Source: Scenedesmus sp. ARA3
Lineage: Eukaryota; Chlorophyta; Chlorophyceae; Sphaeropleales; Scenedesmaceae
Assembly (NCBI GenBank): GCA_004335835.1
Contig: RWJK01001532.1
Location: 1-17,485 of the forward strand
Direction of reading: 5' to 3'
DNA: 17,485 nucleotides
The notes under the pieces are model-generated. The model worked only from the letters and a program-made list of their open reading frames with translations. It was not told the origin of the DNA and did no database searches. Each line of letters starts with the position of its first letter. The first letter of the stretch is position 1. This document shows, piece after piece, positions 60 to 17,485 of this stretch. The position numbers and the translations under genes are program-made.

Positions 60-499
60 GCCATGGACGCTGCGTGAGCAGCAGCCACTATGGCACACCA
101 CTAACAGATGACGTGCACTCCACTGGGAAACTCTCTGTGTGATAGTTATCAAACCATCACTTTGATTGCAGCCACATCCTCCGTCATCATCGTAATGGCA
201 GCCATATCCACTGTCATGCATTCTTTTATTCTGAACAACACCGGCAGTGCTCTATAATGTGCTTGTGCTCGAGAGCCAGCCGTGCCTTTATGCAAGAGCA
301 CTGGAATCTGGCTGAGTGTAACCCCACACCACACCTGACGGTACTGTCACCAGGCGACAACAGCTGCCGTTGCAGTTGCATACCAACTACTCCCTGAGCA
401 AGCCCTGTTGGCAAATCATGCCCAGACAAGTCTGGGTCAAGTTCTACGCTGGTCAACGGGCTGGTTGTTGGCGGCTTGGATGCAGTGAACCGCTGCTGC
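58..499. other. No recognisable gene
   Basis: This stretch lies between the GAT tract and the 32-bp minisatellite. Short open frames exist on both strands but show no conserved motif, no clear codon bias and no convincing splice structure. I see no RNA gene. Confidence 0.6.
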
Positions 500-935
500 A
501 GTCAGGTGAGGGGAGTACAAGTGTACTGCAACTGTTTGCATAGCAGCCAAGATGTGCTGCTGCTGCTTGGCCTGGATGCCCAAGTGTACTGCTTCCTGTC
601 TGGCATAGAAGCTGAGGTGTACTGCAACTGTTTGCATGAGAGCCAAGATGTACTGCTGCTGCTTGGCATGGAAGCCCAAGTGTACTGCTCTGCAGTCAGG
701 TGAGTGGATTTGCAAGTGTACTGCCACTGTTGGCATAGAAGCCCGAGTGTACTGCTGCTGCTTGGCATGGAAGCCCAAGTGTACTGCCACTGTGTGACAT
801 AGAAGCTGAGGTGTACTGCTACTGTGTGGCATAGAAGCCGAGGTGTACCGCCGCTGCTTGGCATAGAAGCCGAGGTGTACTGCCACTGTGTGGCGTAGAA
901 GCCGAGGTGTACCCCTGCTGCTTGGCATCGTGTTT
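500..935. repeat. 32-bp tandem minisatellite, about 13 units
   Basis: Units begin with a TGGCATAGAAGCC-like core followed by (G/C)AGGTGTACTGC and a CTG-rich tail. Perfectly spaced unit starts fall at 731, 763, 795, 827, 859, 891 and 923. Earlier units at about 504, 536, 568, 601, 632 and 664 vary by one to five bases in spacing and are more diverged. Because 32 is not a multiple of three, the array leaves open frames on both strands that repeat every 32 residues. I regard these as by-products. There are no unique spacers between units, so this is not a CRISPR array. Confidence 0.9.
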
Positions 936-1166: not shown

Positions 1167-2290
1167 GTCTTACCCAGTCCAAGCCCCAGCGCCAGCCCCA
1201 GCCCGAGCCCAGCAACATCGTTGATCATAACACCCAGCCCTAGCCCATCACCCAGCCCATCACCCAGCCCCAGCCCACCACCTGAGGTACCCAGCCCCAG
1301 CCCATCGCCCAGCCCCCGTTACACCCAACCCACCACCTGAGGTACCCAGCCCCAGCCCATCACCCAGCCCCGTTACACCCGTCCCACCACCGGAGGTACC
1401 CAGCCCCAGCCCATCACCCAGCCCCGTTTACACCCGTCCCACCACCGGAGGTGCCAAGCCCCAGCCCATCGCCCAGCTCCAACCCACCAGGAAACAACGG
1501 GAACGGCGGCAATGGCGGAAACAACGGCAACGGTGGCAACGGTGGCAATGGCGGAAGCAACGGCAACGGCGGAAACAACAGAAACAACGGAAACGGCGGG
1601 AACGGCGGCAGCAACGGAAACAACGGAAACGGTGGAAACAACGGGAACGGTGGAGATCCACCCACCCCATCACCCAGCCCACCACCAGAGGTGCTGCCCA
1701 GTCCCAGCCCACCACCCAACCCCAACCCACCGCCAGCGGTGCCCAGCCCCAGCCCACCACCCAGCACTAACGCACCAGGAAACAACGGCAACGGAGGCAA
1801 CGGCGGAAACAATGGCAACGGTGGCAACGGCGGAAACAATGGCAACGGCGGCAACGGAAACAACGATAACGATGGAAACAACGGGAGCGGTGGGAACGGC
1901 GGAGATCCACCCACCCCATCACCCAGCCCACCACCAGAGGTGCTGCCCAGCCCCAGCCCACCACCCAACCCCAACCCACCCCCAGCGGTGCCCAGCCCCA
2001 GCCCTAATCCTCCAGGAAACAGCGGCAATGGCGGCAACAGTGGGAACGGCGGGAATGGCGGAAACAACCCTGGAAAGGGGCCGCCCCGCAATGCACCATA
2101 CAACATGTCACCCAGCCCCAGCCCACCACCGAAGAGGTCACCGAAACCCGGCCCACCACTACCGAAGAGGTCACCTAAGCCCAGCCCGGCACCCAAAGGG
2201 TCACCCAAACCAAGCCCGGCACCAAGGGGGTCACCCAAACACAGCCCAGCACTGAAAGGGGCACCAAAACCCAGCCCACCGCCAAAATGA
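1167..2290 (+). pseudogene. Hydroxyproline-rich (SP/NG-rich) cell-wall type glycoprotein, 5'-incomplete, frame broken twice
   Basis: The sequence encodes the C-terminal part of an extracellular, probably prolyl-hydroxylated structural protein of the kind found in volvocine walls; the function is inferred from composition. Modules in order: Ser-Pro repeats (1167-1490); an Asn-Gly-rich block (about 1492-1656); a GDPPTPSPSPPPEV module with NPNPPPAV (1657-1770); a second Asn-Gly block (1774-1900) and a second copy of the Pro module (1903-2010); a short third Asn-Gly block (2014-2070); and a Lys-rich tail of SPKPSPAPKG-like repeats ending at TGA 2288-2290. The probable exon start follows CTGCAG at 1161-1166. 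Between 1284 and 1450 a 54-nt unit (start GAGGTACCC) is repeated. The first copy carries an extra C (C5 at 1313-1317, C4 in the next copy) and the third an extra T (1427-1429). Each shifts the frame by one, so three frames must be joined to read the whole. These could be real lesions (pseudogene), homopolymer sequencing errors, or sequence removed by an unrecognised intron. The 5' end was not identified. Confidence 0.72.
1284..1450 (+). repeat. 54/55-bp in-gene tandem repeat carrying two frame breaks
   Basis: Unit starts at 1284, 1339, 1393 and 1448 give spacings of 55, 54 and 55. The 54-nt form encodes an 18-residue Glu-Val-Pro-Ser-Pro type unit. The two 55-nt forms each have one additional base in a C or T run. 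The last unit continues into the Asn-Gly block. Confidence 0.88.
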
Positions 2291-6778: not shown

Positions 6779-9700
6779 ATGAACAAGCTTTTGATCGCCG
6801 CGCTGTTCGGTCTGCTGCTCCTCTCTGCCCCGTTCGTTCGGGGAGAGGAGGCAGAGAAGGAGGACGAGTATGAGGACGACAGTGCCTCCGAAGACAGCAA
6901 GGGTGGCGACGATGAGGAGAAGGATGTGGTGGTGATCACAACAAAGAACTGGGACGACACAGTCAAGAAGGCACCCTTCGCACTGGTATGCAGCCAGCAC
7001 GCATAGAAACAGCTGATCATGGATGCATGATGTTCTCGAGAGAAAGTGCGCCTGCCTCGCACCGCTGGCACGCTTCAGGTCCCACAGGCAGTGCAGCAGC
7101 AGCACTCGCCCTTCTCCGGCCTGGCTCATTCGTTCTTGCCCGCCTCGCAGGTCGAGTTCTACGCTCCTTGGTGCGGTCATTGCCAGGTAAGAGCTGTTTC
7201 AATAGGCGTCAGCCTCAGCAGACGGCAGATCACTGCCCTTGCTCACTGGTAGTTGTTTCACTGCTCCCGCAGAAGCTGAAGCCCGAGTACGCCAAGGCAG
7301 CCACCGAACTGAAAAAGTATGACGACAAGATCGTTATCGGCAAGGTGAGCTGAGCTGTGGGTGCCTCAGGGGCGAGGTTGTTGGCTTAACCACTTGGCGT
7401 GCTGGCCTTGCAACACCGCATGGAGTCCTACACGGCTGTATATGTGTCTCGACGAAGCTTGGGGACTGTTTTTCATGGCCTGGTGGTCGCGTGTGAGCGT
7501 GCAACCACGCTGTTCAGTACTTTCACCAGAAGTTGCCGTTCGTTCCTAGCCCAGCACCCACCCATACGATCTACTCTTTCTGACAATTGCAGTTGCGTGA
7601 CTGTTGGTTGTCACAGCGTATATGGGCAAGCACAACACAATCTACCATGCTTGCAGCTGTTGAATCACAGCAGCAGGGGTGCACAGCCTTGCTGCTGTTC
7701 ATCCTGTTGCTGTACTGCATGCAGTCACTGGTTGCTGCACTGCCTGAAAACATGCAAATTGCAGACATAGTTCACAAACCTCTCCACGGGGCCGCACGGT
7801 CACCTGGTGGAGGGGTAGGGGGTACGGAGCCGGCGACGGCAAGCCTACCCTCGTTCCTTAATTTACGCAGGCTTCCGCGTCCCTGGCAGCCAGGGGTGCA
7901 CGTTAGCCTCGCGTAGTCTCTCTCTCTCTCTCTCTCTGCAGACATATCTGCATCATCCTTTGTGCTACACAACATCACAGCAGCTGCCGTCTCTGCTGTG
8001 CACATCAGTTTTGACCCAACCGCCACACACCTGCGCGACAGCAGCAGCGCTACTGCTGTTGTCGTGCTGCCTCATGTCCTGCAAGCCCTCTCTCTGACCC
8101 TTGTTTGACCGCGTTGACTGTCGTTTGACCGTGTTTGACCAGGTTGACGCCACTGTGGAGTCCGACCTGGGCCAGAAGTTTGGCGTGCAGGGCTACCCCA
8201 CCCTCAAGTGGTTCGTTGATGGCGAGCTGGTGTCCGACTACGGAGGCCCCCGTGATGCGTGAGTTTCTGTTCCCCTTACTCATGTATTGCGATCCTTTGT
8301 GAATTACAACAAGCTGCCAATAGCCAACATGCGCGCGCTGGAGCTGCACAAGCAGCAAGGTACATCATGTAACAGCGGAAGCAGTCCCTGCAGCGCGTGA
8401 GTCATGATCTGCTGGCCAATGCTTTGCTGCTTTCATTCAGAATGCTTGCAGGCCACGCTGAGCAGGCAGCTGCCATTTCACTTGCCTTGGTGCTGCATGT
8501 TGCTGTTGCTTCTGTGAAGCTCTGTCGCCAGCAGCTGCACACAGCAGCGTTTTTGCACCTGCCTGTGTGTGACCCTTTTCACTCCACGCACTGTTGCTGC
8601 TGCTGGTGCTGCTGCTGGCACTGGAGCTGGATTGTACTGGCACCTGCCTGTGAGTGAACCTTTTCACTCCACGCTGCTGCTGCTGCTGTTCAACCCTTGC
8701 AGCTCCGGCATCAGCCGCTGGGTGCAGAAGAAGACAGGCCCTGCTGCTGCCATTGTGTTCTGACACGTGCATGTTTTTTGCTGCTGCGCTACTGCTGCTG
8801 CTTATTTGTCTATACAGTTCCGGCATCAGCCGCTGGGTGCAGAAGAAGACAGGCCCCGCTGCTGCCACCCTTGCTGACAAGGATGCCCTGGAGGCTGCTG
8901 AGAAGGGCGCTGAGGTGCTGGTGCTGGGCTACTTCAAGGACTTCAAGGTGCAAATGATTGCACTTCTCGCTAAGGCTGGATTCTGTTGGGATCGTTGGTT
9001 GTTGGATATTGATGTCTTTTTTTGGAGATCTTGGTGGGACTTATCAATCAGCTGTTGCTTGATGCTACTGCGGGGGTGCGCAGGTGTTGGTGCTGCGCTA
9101 CTTCAAGGACTTCCATGCTGCAAAGCTGCAGGATAGCTAGTTGTGCAGTCTGCAGTGAAAAAGCTGCATGCGTAGACACAACATGGCTGCCGGGGGACAT
9201 ATCTGTTTGAAGCTCTGCGCAGGCATTGCATCAACCGCCACCAACGCTTGGATACGTGCTGCTGCTTCTGGTTCTTGCAGGGTGCTGAGCACGAGGCCTT
9301 CATCAAGGTTGCCCAGGCCAACGAGGACGCCACCTTTGTGCAGACCAGCGACAAGGCAGTGGCCAAGGCAGCAGGCCTGGACAAGGCTGGCAGCGTGACC
9401 GTCATCACCAACTTCCCCAGTGAGTGCTTGGGGCTAGATCTTCGTCCTCAGTGGGTCTTTGGGGCCAGATCTTGCTGTACATCGATCAAAGTGGTCCACA
9501 GGCAGTGGTTGCCAATCAGGCAGTTGCTGTTGCGCTGAAGTTTTTTGAACATAAGCGGGTGCTGGGAGTTCTTTGTCGTGTGCCAGCAGCAAGGCAGTGG
9601 CAAAGGAGCGTCAGATCAAGTCCAAGAAAAGCAGCTGCCCCCTGCCTTCTCACACCTGCTTCTGTTGTTATTTTTCTGTTACTTTTCTGTCATTTGCAGA

Positions 9701-12700
9701 CGAGGAGCGCCAGACCGTGGCCCTGAAGGGCAAGATCACCAAGGACGGCCTGGGCGATCTCATCAAGTCTGAGAAGCTGCCCCCCACCATCGAGTTCAAC
9801 GACCAGAACAGCCAGAAGATTTTCTCATCCGGCATTGAGAAGCAGCTGCTGCTGATTGCCAACGAGAAGGACCTGAAGGCTGACGCTGAGCTGTTCAAGT
9901 CCTACCGCAAGGTGGGTTCAAGGCCTGGGGTTTTTGGCTGTTGTTGTTTTTTTACAGGGTGAGGCATTGAGAAGAAGCTGCTGCTGATCGCCAACGAGAA
10001 GGACCTGAGGGCCGATGCTGAGCTGTTTCTCCTACCGCAAGGTGGGTGTTACAGCCTAGGTGTTCAGGGCTGTGGGTTTGGCTTTCACACAGGAGGATTC
10101 GACTTTCGCCGTTACAGCAGCGTCCAGTGTTTCTGCCGCAGCATGCAGACAGCAGCCTGTGGTTGCTTTGCTGCGTGATTTTGTCCTTGTTACCAAATTG
10201 TGAATGTGTTTGCTTGTTTTGCTTTCACTTTCACAGGTTGCCCTTAAGCACAAGGTCAAGCTGGTGATGGTGACTGTGAATGCTGTCCAGTGTCACCATC
10301 TGATGTCATTTTGTTGTCACTTTCCATGTTGATTTCTGTCACAGGTGGCCCTGGAGCGCAAGGGCAAGCTGGTGATGGTGACCGTGAACATGACACTTGC
10401 AGCAGCCGTGTACATGTTACAATGTCATCTTCTGATGTCATTTTGTTGTCATTTTGTTTGTAACTGCAGGTGGCCCTGGAGCACAAGGGCAAGCTGGTGA
10501 TGGTGACCGTGAACATGACACTTGCAACAGCCGTGTACATGTTGCATTGTCATCTTCTGACGTTATTTTGTTGTCATTTTGTTTGGCACTGCAGGTCGCC
10601 CTGGAGCACAAGGGCAAGCTCGTGATGGTGACCGTGAACATGGACGGAACTGCCAAGGACCCCGTCGTGAACTTCTTCGGTGTGAAGGCCGAGGACGCAC
10701 CCGTGGTGGTGGGCTTTGAGATGGCCAAGAACAAGAAGTACAAGCTGAAGGGCGACCTCAGGTGAGGTCTGCTGCATTTGTTGCTCTGCTGCGCATCGCA
10801 GAGGCAGAGTACAAGTCTGCTCCCATTCCTGACATGTATTGCAATGCTGCCCTCTGCTGCACCCTGTTTGCGTCTTGTGTGCTACAGCGATAAGGCCCTG
10901 GGCGAGTTTGCAGCCTCTGTCCTGCACGGTACCGCAGAGGCTGAGTACAAGTCTGCGCGTATCATACGATCCTCACCCCCTGCTGCCCTCTGCTGCACAT
11001 ATGTTTTGACCCTGCAGCGAGAAGGCCCTGGGCGAGTTCGCTGCATCCGTCCTGGACGGCACCGCAGAGGCTGAGTACAAGTCTGCCCCCATCCCCGATG
11101 AGCCAACTGACGGCGGTGTTTCCATCATTGTGGGCAAGAACTTCGACTCCATTGTCAAGGATGAGGAGAAGGATGTGCTGCTCGAGGTGGGCATGCAGAT
11201 CACCGCAGCTTTTGCGCTTTCTGCTGGTGCCTGTTTGTGTATGTGCGTGCAAGCAGCAGCCAACTTATTAAGTGTGCATAGAAATGGGCTGCCTGTTGTC
11301 ATCTTTGTGGTGTGGCGTCGGCTAGTTTTCAACTCCTGTTGTGAATGATGAGGAGAAGGATGTGCTGCTGTGAGTGGGCTTCTGCATGCTGCTCTCTTCT
11401 GCTATGCTGCTAACGCATCGCTGCCATGCGCCTGAGAGACTGTTGCCTGACAATGTGCTGCTGTTGCCTGCAGGTGTACGCCCCGTGGTGCGGCCACTGC
11501 AAGGCCCTGGAGCCCGTGTACAAGAAGCTGGCCAAGCGCTTTGCCAAGGTAGGAAACAATTTTAATTGATTTGCAAGTACTAGATAACAGCAGAGCAACA
11601 GTCGAGCAATGTGGGCTGCAGCGCAGCAGCAGCTGTGTGCAAGAAGCTGGCTAACAAATCCTTCAAATCAACAAGGCAGCAGTCATGCTGCAGCAACAGC
11701 GCAGATGGCACAAACCAGCAAGGGCCTGCATGACTGCAAGTAGTGAAGCAGCTGCTGTTGTTTACTGTACGCGAAGCAGCAGTTGCAAATCCCACAGTAA
11801 TCAATGCCTTCTCATCGTTCGCATGCCGTACTCATGTTGTGTCAATTTTACACGTGCAGGTTGACACCGTGGTCATTGCCAAGATGGACGGCACTGAGAA
11901 CGAGCACCCCGATGTTGAGGTGAAGGGCTTCCCCACCATCATCTTCTACCCGGCCGGCAAGGACGCAAAGCCCATCACTTTTGATGGTGGCGACCGCAGC
12001 CTCAAGGTGCGTTTGGCGCATTGTTCCTTCTCTTGGCGCACTGTTTCAATTTTTTGGCTGGGGTCTTGCGGGGTCTTGTGGAACCAAATATGTCTGGTCA
12101 CTGTTCTTCTGCTTTGTTCTGCTGCTCTGTAAGCTCTGCAAGTACATTGTTAAATCTAATTTAATCAATCTAGCATCAGCTGCTCACTACGCCTTGTTCG
12201 AGGAGGACAATGTCAGCAGATATTAGTGTCTGCCATCACGCACTTCATCTCCTGTATCAGGACGCTGACACACGCTCCTGTAGCCCCTTGTGTTCATCGT
12301 GCTTCCTGCAGGCGCTGACCAAGTTCATCAAGAAGAACGCAGTCAGCAAGTTTGAGCTGCCAAACATGTCGATGACACCTTCATTGTTAACTGTAGTCTA
12401 ACGAATGTGCTGCTTTGTGTTTCTTTGCTTCCTGCAGGCGCTGACCAAGTTCATCGAGAAGAACGCTGTCAGCAAGTTTGAGCTGCCAGGCATTTCGATG
12501 ACGCCCTCCTTCAATGCTCGTTTGACAAATGTGCTGCTTTGTGTTTCTGCTTCCTGCAGGCTCTGACCAAGTTCATCAAGTCTGACCAAGTTCATCAAGA
12601 AGAACGCAGTCAGCAAGTTTGAGCTGCCAAACACTCGATGACACCTTCCTTGAATGCTAGTCTGACACATGTGCTGCTTTGCCTTTGTGCTTCCTGCAGG

Positions 12701-12819
12701 CTCTGACCAAGTTCATCAAGAAGAACGCAGTCAGCAAGTTTGAGCTGCCAAAGAAGAAGAAGAGTGACGATGGCGAGAAGGATGCCGAGGAGGAGGACGA
12801 CAAGAAGGATGAGCTTTAG
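6779..12819 (+). CDS. PDI1: Protein disulfide isomerase, RB60/PDI1 type, 12 exons, complete
   Basis: An ER-luminal oxidoreductase that forms and rearranges disulfides. Proposed join: 6779-6985, 7151-7186, 7273-7344, 8143-8258, 8818-8947, 9281-9419, 9700-9911, 10595-10761, 11018-11186, 11474-11548, 11860-12006, 12700-12819. All introns are GT-AG and the total is 1590 nt (529 residues). Residues 1-22 form a signal peptide (MNKLL, hydrophobic core, ending VRG), followed by an acidic stretch to about residue 49. Thioredoxin domain a carries WCGHC at 76-80, b and b' domains follow, and domain a' carries WCGHC at 421-425. A charged Lys/Glu/Asp tail ends in KDEL (526-529, stop TAG). Length and architecture match the Chlamydomonas RB60 family (about 530 residues), whose member has been reported in both ER and chloroplast; only the ER signals are visible here. 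The first active site is followed by Gln rather than the usual Lys. Exon 2 is only 36 nt. Introns 4-11 contain partial duplicate exon edges, listed separately. No transcript evidence was used; exon edges rest on frame and conservation. Confidence 0.96.
7345..8142 (+). other. PDI intron 3 (798 nt) with hairpins and a TC tract
   Basis: This is the longest PDI intron. It holds an imperfect inverted repeat (about 7810-7819 with 7844-7852, GAGGGGTAGG / CCTACCCTC) in a GC-rich patch, a second small hairpin CCCTGG-CAG-CCAGGG (7881-7895), and a (TC) run at about 7917-7937 ending in TGCAG. Several TTTGACC/GTTGAC motifs crowd the last 45 bases before the exon 4 acceptor and could act as branch points. 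No duplicate exon edge was recognised in it. Confidence 0.6.
8555..8760 (+). repeat. PDI intron 4 duplications, including a decoy copy of the exon 5 start
   Basis: An 84-bp-spaced duplication (copies from 8555 and 8639, sharing GCACCTGCCTGTG and CCTTTTCACTCCACGC) is followed by TTGCAG and then, at 8703-8752, a near-identical copy of the first ~50 nt of exon 5 (real exon from 8818). After the shared part the decoy runs into an in-frame TGA at 8761-8763. Splicing to it would give the same residues SGISRWVQKKTGPAA and then stop. Confidence 0.9.
9081..9113 (+). repeat. Decoy copy of the exon 5 3' end in PDI intron 5
   Basis: The sequence CAGGTGTTGGTGCTGCGCTA followed by CTTCAAGGACTTC matches the last coding bases of exon 5 (ending 8947) with few changes. 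The donor GT is lost, as the copy continues CATGCTGC. Confidence 0.85.
9591..9646 (+). repeat. Decayed chimeric exon remnant in PDI intron 6
   Basis: Bases 9591-9610 resemble the exon 6 stretch AAGGCAGTGGCCAAGG. Bases from about 9606 resemble the exon 7 start (GAGCGCCAG), and 9613-9646 the exon 7 stretch encoding IKSEKLPP. Pieces from the two flanking exons are joined with gaps, so this looks like an old rearranged duplicate. Similarity is lower than in the other decoys. Confidence 0.55.
9964..10041 (+). repeat. Decoy copy of the exon 7 3' end with donor in PDI intron 7
   Basis: This closely matches the last ~75 nt of exon 7 (GIEKQLLLIANEKDLKADAEL region), including CGCAAG|GTGGGT. It carries a two-base deletion near the end (CTGTTTCTCC in place of CTGTTCAAGTCC), so the frame would shift if it were used. 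Confidence 0.9.
10237..10594 (+). repeat. Three tandem decoys of the exon 8 start with acceptor (108/125/125 bp)
   Basis: Copies begin at 10237, 10345 and 10470, each directly after an AG; the genuine exon 8 begins at 10595. Each unit holds up to 48 nt of exon 8 (encoding VALEHKGKLVMVTVNM) plus about 60-77 nt of the preceding intron with its TTTTGTTGTC-rich tract. The second and third units differ at only about eight of 125 positions. The first is shorter and more diverged. Exon similarity ends sharply after the AACATG codons, so none can replace exon 8. Confidence 0.93.
10797..10956 (+). repeat. Partial decoys of exon 9 in PDI intron 8
   Basis: At 10797-10832 a fragment matches the exon 9 part encoding AEAEYKSAPIP. 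At 10888-10956 a copy with its own acceptor (GCTACAG) matches the exon 9 start (real exon from 11018) through EYKSA, then departs. The spacer sequence TGCTGCCCTCTGCTGCAC is also duplicated at about 10845 and 10980. Confidence 0.88.
11347..11371 (+). repeat. Decoy copy of the exon 9 3' end in PDI intron 9
   Basis: GATGAGGAGAAGGATGTGCT at 11347 repeats the exon 9 end at 11160, 187 bp away. Three bases (CTCGAG region) are lost and the junction becomes CTGCTGTGAGTG, still a donor-like sequence. Confidence 0.85.
11630..11667 (+). repeat. Decayed copy of the exon 10 3' end in PDI intron 10
   Basis: GTGTGCAAGAAGCTGGCTAA and following bases resemble the exon 10 segment encoding VYKKLAKRFAK (ending 11548), with substitutions and loss of the donor. 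Similarity is moderate. Confidence 0.6.
12312..12699 (+). repeat. Three tandem decoys of the PDI terminal exon, all lacking KDEL
   Basis: Copies begin at 12312, 12438 and 12560, each after CTTCCTGCAG; the genuine last exon starts at 12700. Each has the 51-nt segment encoding ALTKFIKKNAVSKFELP, then breaks into a shared non-exon tail (TCGATGACACC-like) instead of the Lys/Asp/Glu tail. The first copy reads on in frame to TAA at 12399-12401 and the second stays open through the third copy's start. The third has a 19-bp internal duplication that shifts its frame. Unit lengths are 126, 122 and 140 bp. Confidence 0.93.
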
Positions 12820-14038
12820 ACTGTGAAGTTCAATCTTCTCTGTGTGAAGTATGGACAGCAGCCACCGTGAAGTTCTCAGCAGCGGATGGTTGGCTTGGGG
12901 GTTGGTGGTTGGGGCAGAGATTGGGAAGATGCAGAGAGAGTGAGCGAGTGTGAGTCTGGTGCAATAGCTGCGGCGGCAACAGTTGAAATGGCTGTTGCTG
13001 CGCAGGCTGTGTCACTGGGTGCTTGCGAGTGGTTGCAGCTGCGCTCACGTACAGATCTATGTGCAGGCGCGCCGCACAGACAGCAGCATCACACGCTCAG
13101 GATGACTTGCGTGTTTCTTTCGGGCATTGCAACTCGCTGCTGCTGCTTGCGATATGGCATTCCTTACATCTGTCAGTTGGCCGTACGGCCGCTGTGTCAG
13201 CAGCAGCAACAGCAGTTGATGTGGGGTCAGCAGCATGCCTGGCCAAGGCAGTAAGGCTGCTGCAGGGTGTTGGGGTTTTGGGCGTGCCAGCAAAGTATGA
13301 ACATACTGACCGGAGCTCGCGTGCTTTGTTTTGTTTGCTCATACGTCAACATGCTCAAGCGGTAACATATCAAAAACCAGTTCCTTGCGATGTGCCTTCT
13401 GGCAGCATGTTGCAGGAGTGTTTGACTGCTGCAACGCCAGCTGATGGCATTGTCATGGTTGCCTTCTTGCTGCTGACTCAGCTGCTGCAGTACTCTGCAA
13501 CACACCGCTACCTTAAGCCCTATCCTGCGAATGATTGATAGCAATATACAACAACCTTACTGTGTTGGAGCAGGCGAACAAGAATGCAGGATGCTAGTCT
13601 CGATGTGCACGGGCAAACGGCAGGTGTGAGGTTTTCCCGCGCTCCCATCATAGTGGAACAGCGACGCCACTCTGCATAGGTTCCGCAGCATAGACAAAGA
13701 ACTAATACATTACACGTTTTTGCATATCTATTGCACTCTAGAAGCTCACGACCGGAGCGCAAGCAGCGTGACCTGTTCTGGTGCCCGAAGCTGCAGGCCG
13801 CGCCCTACCACTCTGAGTGGACAGTGACATACATAAGCAGCACACGCGTTTCAGCACCTAATATCTGATTGGGTGGTTGCTCTCCATATGTCCTGTACAC
13901 CTGTGTGACTGCACAAAGTTTGATTGCGGTGTCCTGCACACAGAGTCGGGGGAGCCCAGTTCTGGAACAGCAAGACGCAACAAGCCATCTATTCATTGCA
14001 CGAGGAAAATAGTGCCTGGTTTTTGAATCCTGGCTAAA
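12820..14038. other. Spacer between the PDI and glycosidase genes
   Basis: It should contain the PDI 3' untranslated region and the promoter of the downstream gene. I find no TGTAA poly(A) signal, no clear TATA element and no supported gene. A 171-codon plus-strand frame (13023-13538) has no recognisable domain and lacks the G/C-ending codon bias of the real exons. Confidence 0.5.
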
Positions 14039-14917
14039 ATGGCTCACCGGAGGCTTCAACTTGCCGCGGTGCTGGCTCTGGCTGCATTCGCTGTGGCGCA
14101 GGTGCGTGCCTGCTGCGGGATATAATCTCAACAGTAGCATTAGCCAGTTAGCGTGATCTAAATAGCAATGGATGCCATGAATAGGTCGACAGTAGATGTA
14201 CTGCGCCAATTACGTACCACTGGACAGACAGTAGGACACTCTGCGCTCAATCCGAGTCAGTAGGAAGACAGCACATCACTCAACATGATTGCATACAGAC
14301 AAAACTGCCTCATTAAAATATCTATCGTCCCTGTTCAGTCAAATACTTGTGCCGAGTTGATCTACAAAGCAGCTACGCATGGCCAGTCTATCTACTGCAA
14401 AGAATCGTGTTGAACATGTGGCGTTTTCGAAGCTTGCAGCGGGTTTGCGAAGGCCTTGGCCCAGAGCAGTAGCAGCAGCTGTGTCTGTGCTGGTTGCTGC
14501 AGTAGTGCTGGGCCTAGCCTCACATCTGTATCTGGAATGGAAGGTTGTGTAGCAGATTCGTGCAGCATCACTATAAGCATATCAACCCTGCTGAATAGCA
14601 TCGGCATGCTTGCAACAGACACTGCACACCAGAAAAACACGCCGACCACAGCGCGAATGACAGCAGCAGCAGTGCTGGGCACTGTAAGCTTGCACTCATT
14701 TTGGGCCTCTTCCCCACATGTCTTTAGGGGAGAACACATTTTCACACTTCCTGTGCTTCTTCATAACAGAACATGTTCCCACTGCTGCTGCAGCTTGAGC
14801 ACTGGCAGCTGCACTGGCAGACTGCTCTTGCACCGCAGCCCAGCTTGCCTGCTGCCTCCTGCTCCCACAGCAGCACTGGCATGCAATGACCCGCAACTAA
14901 CACAGGCTTTGCCGCCA

Positions 14918-14966
<49 letters not shown>

Positions 14967-16714
14967 AGGCCAGGCAGATCTCACACCTGCCGGATGCACC
15001 AGCCATGTGCCCGCTGGAGATGCGCAAAAACACACGCTGGGGTGTGGCCACAGCATCCTACCAGGTGGGTTTTAGGCTTTTGAGGTTTTGGTTGTGGCTG
15101 CTGCTGTGGTTTAGGACTGCCATGTGCCCGCTGGAGATGCGCAAACACACACGCTGGGGCGTGGCCACAGCATCATACCAGGTGGGTTTCAGGCTTTTGA
15201 GGTTTTGTACGTGGCTGCTGCTGTGGTTTAGGACTGCCAGGTGCCCGCTGGAGATGCGCAAAAACACACTCTGGGGTGTGGCCACTGCTGTTGTGCACAG
15301 AACACCAGTCAGCAACATGAGAGAGAGGCAGCAAGACAGCAGCAGCAGCAGTGCAGGGACCGGCTGCAATGCTCACAGCAGCAGTGGCTGCAGCAGCCAG
15401 TAGCGCTGTGTGTAGTATGCTGCTTGAGCAAGCACACACTAGCTGTATGTGGCACAGCAACGGCAACCAGGCAGGCCAATGCGCAAGTTGTAGCTGCTCT
15501 GCAATGAGCTTGCTGCATGCTTGCGCATTAGCCTGGCTGGTTGCTGTTGCTGTACCACATACAAACTTTGCCTCCTATGACGGCAGTGTGTCCGTTGATT
15601 TGGTCGTGACATGGTGCTTGACAGCCGCTGCTGTAGCTGTATGCAGCAGCAGCTGGAGCAGCAGCAGCAGCAGTCCACCTCATCTGAAGCGATTGGCTGC
15701 AGCTGCTGCTGCGGTGCAGGTGGAGGATGAATGCAATTGGGGTGGGCACACACACAGTTTACTTGCAGCTCCCATAATTCACTGCATTCTAAGATCCCTC
15801 GGTTTCGGATTGCTGCTGCTGCGTTGCAGGTTGAGGGTGGTTGGAATCTGGGCGGGCGCACACCCAGTGTGTGGGACACTTTCTCCCATGCTGGTTTCAT
15901 CAAGAACAATGACACGGGTGACGTGGCATGTGACATGTACCACAAGTACCCCCAGGACTTCAAGCTCATGCGCGAGCTGGGCATCAAGCACTACAGGTGA
16001 CATGTTATTGTGTGTTATTTTGTATGTTATTTCCATATTATTCTTTTGGAAGGACAGCAGAATGTGATGGTGGCGTGGCATGTACCACAAGTACCCCCAG
16101 GACTTCAAGCTCATGCGGGAGCTGGGCATCAAGCACTACAGGTGAAATGACATGTTATGTAGTGTTACTTTATGCTATGAGGCAGCAGAATGACGATGAC
16201 TACTACTCTTAGAATGGCAGCAGCATCTTTGCCTCGCACACCGGAGTGTTGGTTGCTCCCCTGCTTTCTGTGTGTGTAGCAAGCGCCTGGTATTTACACC
16301 ACAAGTGCTGACAAAGCATCATAGTAGCTTTGACTGTTACATAATATGTTACGTAACACATGTTATGCCCTTGCAGGTTCTCCTTCTCCTGGAACCGCAT
16401 CCTGCCGCATGGCGGCAAGGGCACACCAGTGAACCCTGAGGGCATTGCTTTTTACAACAGCCTGATCAACGAGATGATTGCCAACAACATTCGGCCCTAC
16501 GCAACCATCTTTCACTGGGACCTGCCTCAGGTAGGTGAAGCAGCAGCATGTGACGTTTGCTGAGCAGCAACCGAGCAGCAGCAGCATTTGCCAACAACAT
16601 CAGGCCATATGCAACTATCTTCCACTGGGATCTGCCTCAGGTGTGAAGGTGTAGAATGCAATGTAGCCACATGTGCTGTGTACCTTTGTGAGCAGTGGTG
16701 CCAGAGTAGTGCAG

Positions 16715-16813
<99 letters not shown>

Positions 16814-17174
16814 TTTGTCTCAACATGCTACTTTCAGCTCAATAAGCAGCAATGTCTGCCCCAGCCTGGTAATCCGCTGCAGCATCTCGCACATCCTCAC
16901 ACTGTGAACTTCCTGGCCGCCGCTGTGAACTCTGCCATGAACTCCGCAGGTCCTGCAGGACAAGTACCAGGGCCTGATCGCCGAGGAGTTCATCGCGGAC
17001 TTTGTGAACTACGCAAACGTTCTGTTTGAGAACTTTGGGGATCGCATCCGTGACTGGATGACCTTCAACGAGCCCTGGGTGACCTGCGTGCTGCAGGTGG
17101 GGTTTGACACATAGTGGTTCTGTGATGTTGCTGGTCCTACAAATGCTGCTTGTCTACATTGATGCTGCACAGTC

Positions 17175-17322: not shown

Positions 17323-17359
<37 letters not shown>

Positions 17360-17427: not shown

Positions 17428-17485
<58 letters not shown>
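17428..17485. repeat. (CTG)19 microsatellite at the window end
   Basis: Nineteen CTG units run into the right edge of the window. By analogy with introns 1 and 5, this may be the end of the next intron, with the next exon just beyond. Confidence 0.93.

What the first reader, a model, noticed from the sequence alone, without database searches (positions are those of the whole stretch)
8259..16640. Splice-site-spanning partial exon duplications across two adjacent genes
At least 15 intronic copies of exon edges are present. Some carry an acceptor plus the first ~50 nt of the next exon (8703, 10237, 10345, 10470, 10888, 12312, 12438, 12560, 15720). Others carry the last 25-75 nt of the preceding exon, several with the donor (9081, 9964, 11347, 11630, 15115, 16073, 16586). 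Most PDI introns and glycosidase introns 2-4 are affected. No ordinary exon is copied whole, and copies stay next to their source. Two unrelated genes show the same pattern, which suggests a genome-wide process (for example slippage or repair-driven tandem duplication focused on exon-intron junctions) and possibly a role in splice-site choice. The mechanism is inference; the copies are directly visible.
Basis: partly seen in the sequence, partly recalled or inferred. Interest (0 to 1): 0.87.

Follow-up and report, generated by a model that had tools for sequence, protein, structure and literature searches.

The report
Exon-edge copies crowd an alga's introns
In this green alga (Tetradesmus obliquus, judged by an identical protein), 57 of 100 introns examined in twelve genes hold copies of the edge of the exon next door, most with an intact spare splice site; the copies likely began as short tandem duplications across the exon border and are likely kept alike by recombination with the exon, which would make these genes a natural test of how cells choose splice sites.

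Summary
In 12 genes of the same genome (PDI, beta-glucosidase, ten CCT/Cpn60 loci), 57 of 100 introns carry exon-edge copies; 11 of 12 genes have them, one has none. Copies upstream of an exon carry its 5' edge (75 of 76), copies downstream its 3' edge (70 of 77), none carries both. Wholly intronic repeats are rare: 6 of 165 self-matches, where uniform duplication predicts half or more. Copies and spacers make up 40% of the intron bases examined. Splice sites in the copies are strong but decay at the neutral rate. Copy-exon differences are biased to third codon positions more than a neutral copy should allow, yet copies carry frameshifts. The most similar pairs usually (8 of 10) still share flanking intron; others mostly do not (19 of 68). 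Best reading: tandem duplications across splice junctions (a known mutation type, described for one potato gene) that persist because the exon edge is a permanent recombination partner; splicing is predicted to use the sites bordering the full exon. Junction focus is confirmed in the sample; a splice-site-aware copying process is not excluded. No RNA or long reads were available.

The parts
6779..12819 (+). PDI gene, 12 coding exons (6779-6985, 7151-7186, 7273-7344, 8143-8258, 8818-8947, 9281-9419, 9700-9911, 10595-10761, 11018-11186, 11474-11548, 11860-12006, 12700-12819)
   Evidence: spliced model; 100% identity to P0002
14039..17096 (+). beta-glucosidase-like gene, first five exons (14039-14101, 14969-15064, 15830-15996, 16377-16530, 16950-17096); continues beyond
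   Evidence: translation (name from reading the translation; no family search run)
8703..8752 (+). acceptor-side copy of PDI exon 5 head (source 8818-8867); spacer 8753-8817
9074..9117 (+). donor-side copy of PDI exon 5 tail (source 8905-8947), donor not kept
9963..10041 (+). donor-side copy of PDI exon 7 tail with GTGGGT donor (source 9831-9911)
10237..10517 (+). three acceptor-side copies of PDI exon 8 head (10237-10280, 10345-10392, 10470-10517; source 10595-10642), period 108-125
10793..10832 (+). fragment matching exon 9 interior (11059-11098), outer part of the same array
10888..10956 (+). acceptor-side copy of PDI exon 9 head (source 11018-11086)
11328..11369 (+). donor-side copy of PDI exon 9 tail (source 11142-11182)
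11635..11654 (+). possible donor-side copy of PDI exon 10 tail; marginal (20 nt, E 3e-3)
12312..12631 (+). three acceptor-side copies of PDI exon 12 head (12312-12364, 12438-12488, 12560-12631; source 12700-12752); the third holds a further internal 19-nt repeat
15119..15181 (+). donor-side copy of glucosidase exon 2 tail with donor (source 15002-15064); full 117-nt tandem unit
15236..15288 (+). third copy of glucosidase exon 2 tail, lacking the last 10 nt and the donor
15720..15758 (+). acceptor-side copy of glucosidase exon 3 head (source 15830-15868)
16070..16146 (+). donor-side copy of glucosidase exon 3 tail (source 15923-15996), including an ACAGGTGA donor
16588..16638 (+). donor-side copy of glucosidase exon 4 tail (source 16478-16530), including a CAGGTG donor
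8555..8688 (+). the one wholly intronic tandem pair found in the window's introns (8555-8605 and 8640-8688, period 85)

Best explanation
Copies of exon edges sit in the neighbouring introns of this window and of most sampled genes of the same genome; they likely arise as 90-160-nt tandem duplications across a splice junction and are likely kept similar to the exon by recombination with it, while splicing is predicted to go on using the two sites that border the full exon. Step 1 (inferred; shown directly for part of the copies): a tandem duplication takes in one exon edge plus, as a rule, at least 50 nt of intron, giving edge-spacer-edge. Step 2 (inferred from the protein): the normal protein results only if the inner sites, last acceptor and first donor, are used, so the extra edge becomes intron. 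This is the shortest-exon or exon-definition choice. Step 3 (inferred): because one edge is an exon that selection never lets decay, it stays a recombination partner for its intronic copies. Unequal exchange and gene conversion change copy number and carry sequence between exonic and intronic positions, while flanking intron drifts away. Duplications lying wholly inside introns have no such anchor and fade. The result is a minisatellite anchored on a splice junction, and introns about twice as long.
For: Edge rule 75 of 76 and 70 of 77 with no copy holding both edges. Intron-only pairs 6 of 165, against an expected edge:intron-only ratio of 0.55 (0.88 after a rough detection correction) under uniform births (p about 2e-20 under that model). 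Full tandem units exist (15002-15235 and 10342-10591, each 94%; L025 at 98%). Of outermost copies with >= 97% edge identity, 8 of 10 still share flanking intron, versus 19 of 68 of the rest (Fisher p 0.002): the most similar look like plain tandem duplications. Within arrays, spacer-spacer identity averages 0.63 over 66 comparisons against 0.49 for spacers of different genes. Third-position bias is 3.17 (95% range 2.4-4.2) with one copy per side, 80 sides, above the 1.75-2 that by my estimate a neutral copy of a constrained exon allows; differences private to one intronic copy are also biased, 2.27 (1.65-3.17), 26 arrays; 0 stop codons against 5.4 expected in the one-per-side set; yet 23 of 25 indels break the frame: a history partly exonic, partly intronic. 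Splice dinucleotides in copies decay at about the neutral rate (AG 70 of 81, GT 58 of 72). Collapsing the arrays brings median intron length from 622 (59 introns) to 250 nt, near the 294 of 41 introns without copies (the two still differ at p 0.04). Using any of 8 upstream acceptors in the PDI gene instead of the true one shifts the frame, 8 of 8, with a stop before the normal end in 7 of 8.
Against: 12 of 22 outermost copies with >= 95% edge identity show no flanking-intron similarity; homogenisation is invoked to explain this and no exchange tract was demonstrated. For outermost copies alone the third-position bias is 2.48 (1.96-3.17), hardly above the neutral ceiling. In the full set of 153 copies 3 stop-making codon changes were seen. 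The about-50-nt minimum spacer is understandable on the acceptor side (room for branch point and pyrimidine tract) but not on the donor side, where it is about as sharp. The anchoring argument must account for an excess of edge over intron-only events of some 15- to 25-fold (81 sides to at most 6 pairs). One CCT gene (L026) has no copy in 9 introns. Which splice sites are used is deduced from the protein, not from RNA.
Confidence: 0.52

Rival explanations
1. A splice-site-aware process copies the exon edge, bounded at the splice junction, and places it 50-110 nt away in the intron (edge-spacer-edge from birth, spacer unrelated).
For: In 41 of 82 outermost copies similarity runs only 3-10 nt past the junction; 12 of 22 pairs with >= 95% identity lack flank similarity; a 68-nt 100% identical exon tail sits 113 nt from its source behind an unrelated spacer (L023); spacers have a sharp minimum near 50 nt on both sides; intron-only repeats are nearly absent. 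The one spacer searched is single-copy in the genome.
Against: 27 of 78 outermost copies do share flanking intron, and the most similar ones do so most. Third-position bias exceeds what plain snapshots of the exon would give. No known mechanism.
Confidence: 0.22
2. Ordinary tandem duplication at a uniform rate; only those spanning a junction are noticed because exon-internal ones are lethal.
For: Explains why copies keep one edge and never both, and the frame logic.
Against: Predicts at least as many intron-only as edge events; 6 of 165 pairs were intron-only.
Confidence: 0.08
3. The copies are working alternative mini-exons.
For: Public T. obliquus protein models contain copy-like peptides in frame: 11, 10 and 18 aa in PDI models P0003, P0004, P0001, 7 aa in CCT4 models P0121 and P0122 and 27 aa in P0121 only; my own gene finder also called copies as mini-exons; third-position bias and no stops in the one-per-side set.
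Against: 23 of 25 indels break the frame; splice dinucleotides are kept at about the neutral rate; spacers show no consistent GT start or AG end at the inner copy end, though a few do (part of the list cut from view); 7 detected copies on one side of an exon in one CCT gene (L029). The models may be gene-finder output; their RNA basis is unknown to me.
Confidence: 0.1
4. Copies were captured from a diverged second haplotype or strain by unequal exchange, which would give both unrelated spacer and synonymous differences.
For: A strain assembly of almost twice the size of another strain's is reported (PMC5552973, whole text read), compatible with separately assembled haplotypes (my inference); third-position bias.
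Against: A 319-nt PDI query found only its own locus in G000, so no second haplotype of it is held here; introns of haplotypes would need to be unalignable.
Confidence: 0.06
5. Assembly artefact.
For: Short-unit tandem arrays are a classic assembly hazard.
Against: Most copies differ from their source and from each other (median edge identity 0.91 for 78 outermost copies); copy-like peptides appear in models of other assemblies, P0003, P0121 and P0122 on contigs of 3.1 and 4.6 Mb.
Confidence: 0.02

Closest known systems
Potato RdRp intron gain by a tandem duplication crossing an intron-exon boundary (PMC4974935; abstract read)
   Same: Duplicated segment crosses the acceptor; an exonic piece of the upstream copy becomes intronic and the downstream copy brings branch site, pyrimidine tract and acceptor. 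PDI model P0003 would need the same kind of donor inside the copied edge (my inference).
   Different: One gene, one event, a new intron; here 57 of 100 introns, both acceptor and donor sides, arrays, and by the 529-aa model no net change to the mRNA.
Intron gain by tandem duplication of an AGGT-containing exon segment (Hellsten et al. 2011, recalled; described in review PMC3443670, passages read)
   Same: Tandem duplication plus splicing that hides the extra copy.
   Different: There the duplicated piece is exonic and the new intron lies between the two AGGT sites; here the unit straddles an existing junction and lengthens an existing intron.
Minisatellites under concerted evolution (general knowledge)
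   Same: Units of about 90-160 nt, variable copy number, spacers alike within arrays.
   Different: Each array is private to one exon edge and one copy is functional coding sequence.
Introner elements (recalled)
   Same: Mass intron change in algae.
   Different: No dispersed family was recognised: the one spacer searched genome-wide is single-copy and spacers of different genes are 0.49 alike. Against this, one search listed 3429 weak hits of spacers in other stretches (E <= 0.1), many to CTG/CAG runs, and one spacer (L032 1830-1907) matched L008 at 88% over 43 nt (E 3e-10); not followed up.

Membership tests
Tandem duplication across a splice junction | Both exon edge and adjacent intron are repeated head to tail | tested here: inconclusive
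   Flank similarity in 27 of 78 outermost copies, 8 of 10 at >= 97% identity; not detected in most others
Tandem duplication across a splice junction | Copies lie beside the source, same strand | tested here: met
   153 adjacent-intron hits, 1 in a non-adjacent intron of the same gene, 0 opposite strand
Intron gain by AGGT tandem duplication | The duplicated unit is exonic and the new intron lies between its two AGGT sites | tested here: not met
   Copies lie inside existing introns and carry the outer edge of one exon
Introner or other mobile element | Dispersed sequence-related family | tested here: inconclusive
   One spacer searched genome-wide, single copy; spacer-spacer identity between genes 0.49; one other spacer has an unexplained 43-nt match elsewhere
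Alternative mini-exons | Frame and splice sites kept by selection | tested here: not met
   23 of 25 indels break frame; splice dinucleotides at about the neutral rate; third-position bias points the other way
Alternative mini-exons | Present in mRNA | not testable with these tools
   no RNA data; protein models only
Concerted evolution of a tandem array | Copies share variants and constraint with the exon | tested here: inconclusive
   Third-position bias and few stops fit; no exchange tract shown
Exon definition | Sites bordering the shortest full exon are used | not testable with these tools
   Deduced from the 529-aa protein model; RNA needed

The most novel reading that the evidence does not exclude
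T. obliquus has an active, splice-junction-targeted DNA copying process that repeatedly writes exon edges with their splice sites into the adjacent intron at a set distance of 50 nt or more, building some 40% of intron sequence in the sampled genes and pairing each such exon edge with near-identical decoy splice sites that the spliceosome must tell apart.
Probability: 0.22. Interest if true: 0.92.

Novelty: new variant of a known kind. Interest (0 to 1): 0.75.

Why it matters
Tandem duplication across a splice junction is known to me from single cases; here it is a routine feature of the sampled genes and a main source of their intron length. The published mean intron length of T. obliquus is 462 nt against 230-302 in three other Sphaeropleales and 270 in Chlamydomonas (PMC5966456, table passage); arrays could account for the difference (inference). 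Each array sets similar splice sites in competition in a real gene, so the rule of splice-site choice can be read from RNA across many natural replicates. Arrays are also ready starting points for new introns and mini-exons, and a trap for gene finders: several public protein models of this species contain copy-like peptides.

Tried and rejected
Simple neutral tandem duplication at a uniform rate was tested and disfavoured. Spacer as an intron in its own right was looked for; no consistent GT/AG at its inner end (part of the list cut from view). Spacer as a dispersed element: not recognised, but most of the output was cut from view and one spacer match (L032 to L008) was not followed up. Selection for or against the decoy splice sites: none seen (the site model was built from the same true sites). 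Base composition as cause of the third-position bias: rates per exon base are flat, 0.042-0.047. Literature: ten searches, seen as listings; none of the titles or abstract starts shown describes genome-wide exon-edge copies. Only open-licence full text was searched, so this is weak evidence of absence. A comparison with DNA of other strains or other algae was not made; the collections held are bacterial, archaeal, phage, plasmid and viral. A third protein family (HSP70) could not be searched because the machine was busy.

Dropped before counting: the exon lists of the ten CCT/Cpn60 loci (ten of the eleven contigs with hits) come from my own gene finder, with copy-like exons removed by a rule and short or uncertain exons then left out by hand; some 'introns' may hide a small true exon (at least one does, L032 232-391). 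One search gave 176 rows at E <= 0.05 (the middle of its printout was cut, the stored table was used); 153 pass E <= 1e-6. Chains use E <= 1e-4 (59 introns with copies instead of 57), one search uses 1e-5. At the looser cut-offs two copies lie 75 and 77 nt from their source, below the minimum of 88 at E <= 1e-6. Low-complexity matches were removed by an entropy filter. The uniform-birth expectation uses observed periods, edge lengths 25-100 and spacers of 50 or more.
Full report
What was checked. I read the window, listed repeats and built a 12-exon PDI model with canonical splice sites. Its 529-aa product is 100% identical to a Tetradesmus obliquus protein, which names the organism with good confidence and supports the splice sites used. 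The second gene reads as a beta-glucosidase in its first five exons; no family search was run on it.

How general it is. The window is part of an 87.3-Mb, 1567-contig genome. Nineteen other 10-kb stretches, the starts of contigs picked by number without regard to gene content (173 kb without N), hold 62 distinct tandem pairs; 35 of 62 periods fall at 100-159 nt, and 55% of the pairs contain a strongly coding segment against 23% of random segments. Seven of the nineteen had none or one. A family search for Cpn60/TCP1 over the whole genome shows the same model positions matched twice within genes, and so does a tRNA synthetase family in some of its genes (for example C1400 77-156 and 119-156, C584 142-176 and 144-176). 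I fetched ten of the eleven CCT/Cpn60 contig regions and analysed them with the window's two genes.

Anatomy. In 100 introns of 12 genes, 57 hold at least one copy at E <= 1e-6: 44 of 100 acceptor sides and 38 of 100 donor sides. Copies upstream of an exon include its 5' edge in 75 of 76 cases, copies downstream its 3' edge in 70 of 77, and none includes both edges. Counts per gene run from 9 of 9 introns (L023) to 0 of 9 (L026). The offset of the nearest copy is never below 88 nt at this cut-off (75 and 77 nt occur at looser ones). Edge pieces are mostly 25-80 nt; the spacer between copies has a sharp lower limit near 50 nt on both sides, with exceptions of 35, 45 and 46 nt, and is commonest at 53-71 nt. 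Introns with copies have a median of 622 nt; with arrays collapsed 250; introns without copies 294. Arrays make up 40% of the intron bases examined.

Focus on junctions. Self-matches inside these genes fall into 126 exon-edge pairs, 32 copy-copy pairs, 6 intron-only pairs and 1 exon-only pair, although introns offer 51 kb and exons 16 kb. Pairs within one array are not independent. Under uniform duplication with selection against exon damage, half to two thirds of the events should be intron-only. Controls: 1 hit in a non-adjacent intron of the same gene, 0 on the opposite strand, 23 in introns of other genes, of which I read 21 as CCT paralogy.

Are the copies kept for a use? Acceptor AG is intact in 70 of 81 and donor GT in 58 of 72, about what neighbouring identity (0.89 and 0.90 per base) predicts; the sites are strong (median scores 6.1 and 5.9; true sites 8.3 and 7.4; background about -2). 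They are decoys in good order but not visibly selected. In the PDI gene, using any of eight copied acceptors in place of the true one would shift the frame, and so would the one copied donor tried.

How they evolve. If a copy were a neutral snapshot of a constrained exon, third positions should, by my estimate, differ at most 1.75-2 times as often as the others. The figure is 3.17 (2.4-4.2) with one copy per side and 2.48 (1.96-3.17) for outermost copies, so the excess is clear in one set and slight in the other. Differences private to one intronic copy are biased too (2.27, 1.65-3.17), though synonymous change in the exon between two captures could add to that. No stop codon was seen in the one-per-side set where 5.4 were expected; 3 were seen in the full set. 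Yet 23 of 25 indels break the frame. So the copies seem to have been exonic for part of their history and intronic for part, which recombination between exon edge and copies would bring about (inference).

How they start. In full tandem units (glucosidase 15002-15235, PDI 10342-10591) intron is duplicated with the edge. Over all outermost copies 27 of 78 share flanking intron; among the ten most similar, 8 do. This favours tandem duplication at birth followed by faster loss of likeness in the intron. But 12 of 22 pairs with at least 95% edge identity have no recognisable flank, and a 100% identical 68-nt exon tail in L023 sits behind an unrelated, single-copy spacer. I therefore keep a splice-site-aware copying process open at about one in five.

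Other strains. Protein models of T. obliquus from other sources carry extra peptides that repeat exon edges: PDI P0003 (+11 aa), P0004 (+10), P0001 (+18); CCT4 P0121 and P0122 (+7), P0121 (+27). The P0001 insert repeats the head of exon 7, of which I find no copy in this window's intron 6, so copies likely differ between strains. The insertions indicate that copies exist elsewhere, not that they are in mRNA.

Known kinds. The nearest precedent is a potato RdRp gene in which a tandem duplication crossed an intron-exon boundary (PMC4974935, abstract). The AGGT duplication route to new introns (PMC3443670, passages) differs in where the unit lies. I saw no report of the pattern at genome scale in the listings of ten searches of open-licence papers. 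The AS-6-11 genome paper has no hit for 'intron' or 'tandem' in its main text (term search); the DOE0152z paper (whole text) does not discuss introns.

Noticed in passing
window 1286-2290 (+): A 334-codon open frame rich in Pro/Ser and Asn/Gly repeats, like a hydroxyproline-rich wall protein (impression, not searched).
   Followed up: no
window 484-928: Tandem repeat with nested periods of 32, 64, 96 and 195 nt, outside the two genes.
   Followed up: no
window 14919-14966, 16711-16811, 17324-17359, 17428-17485: Long CTG/CAG trinucleotide runs in or near introns; many spacer matches seen in the part shown are to such runs.
   Followed up: partly
L032 spacer 1830-1907 and L008 3728-3770: A spacer matches another genomic stretch at 88% over 43 nt, opposite strand (E 3e-10); possibly a small dispersed repeat.
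   Followed up: no
P0121 and P0122 (CCT4 models of two T. obliquus locus-tag series): A 27-aa exact internal repeat is in the OEZ86 model but not in the OEZ85 model; both hold a 7-aa repeat absent in Chlamydomonas P0134.
   Followed up: partly
L026 (C837:15900-20600): A CCT gene with no exon-edge copy in nine introns, in contrast with its nine sister loci.
   Followed up: no
published T. obliquus annotation: 7.8 introns per gene against 4.0-5.7 in three other Sphaeropleales, but 7.5 in Chlamydomonas; copies called as mini-exons by gene finders may inflate the figure (inference).
   Followed up: no
spacers, donor side: Spacers are rarely under 50 nt on the donor side too, where no branch point is needed; unexplained.
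   Followed up: no
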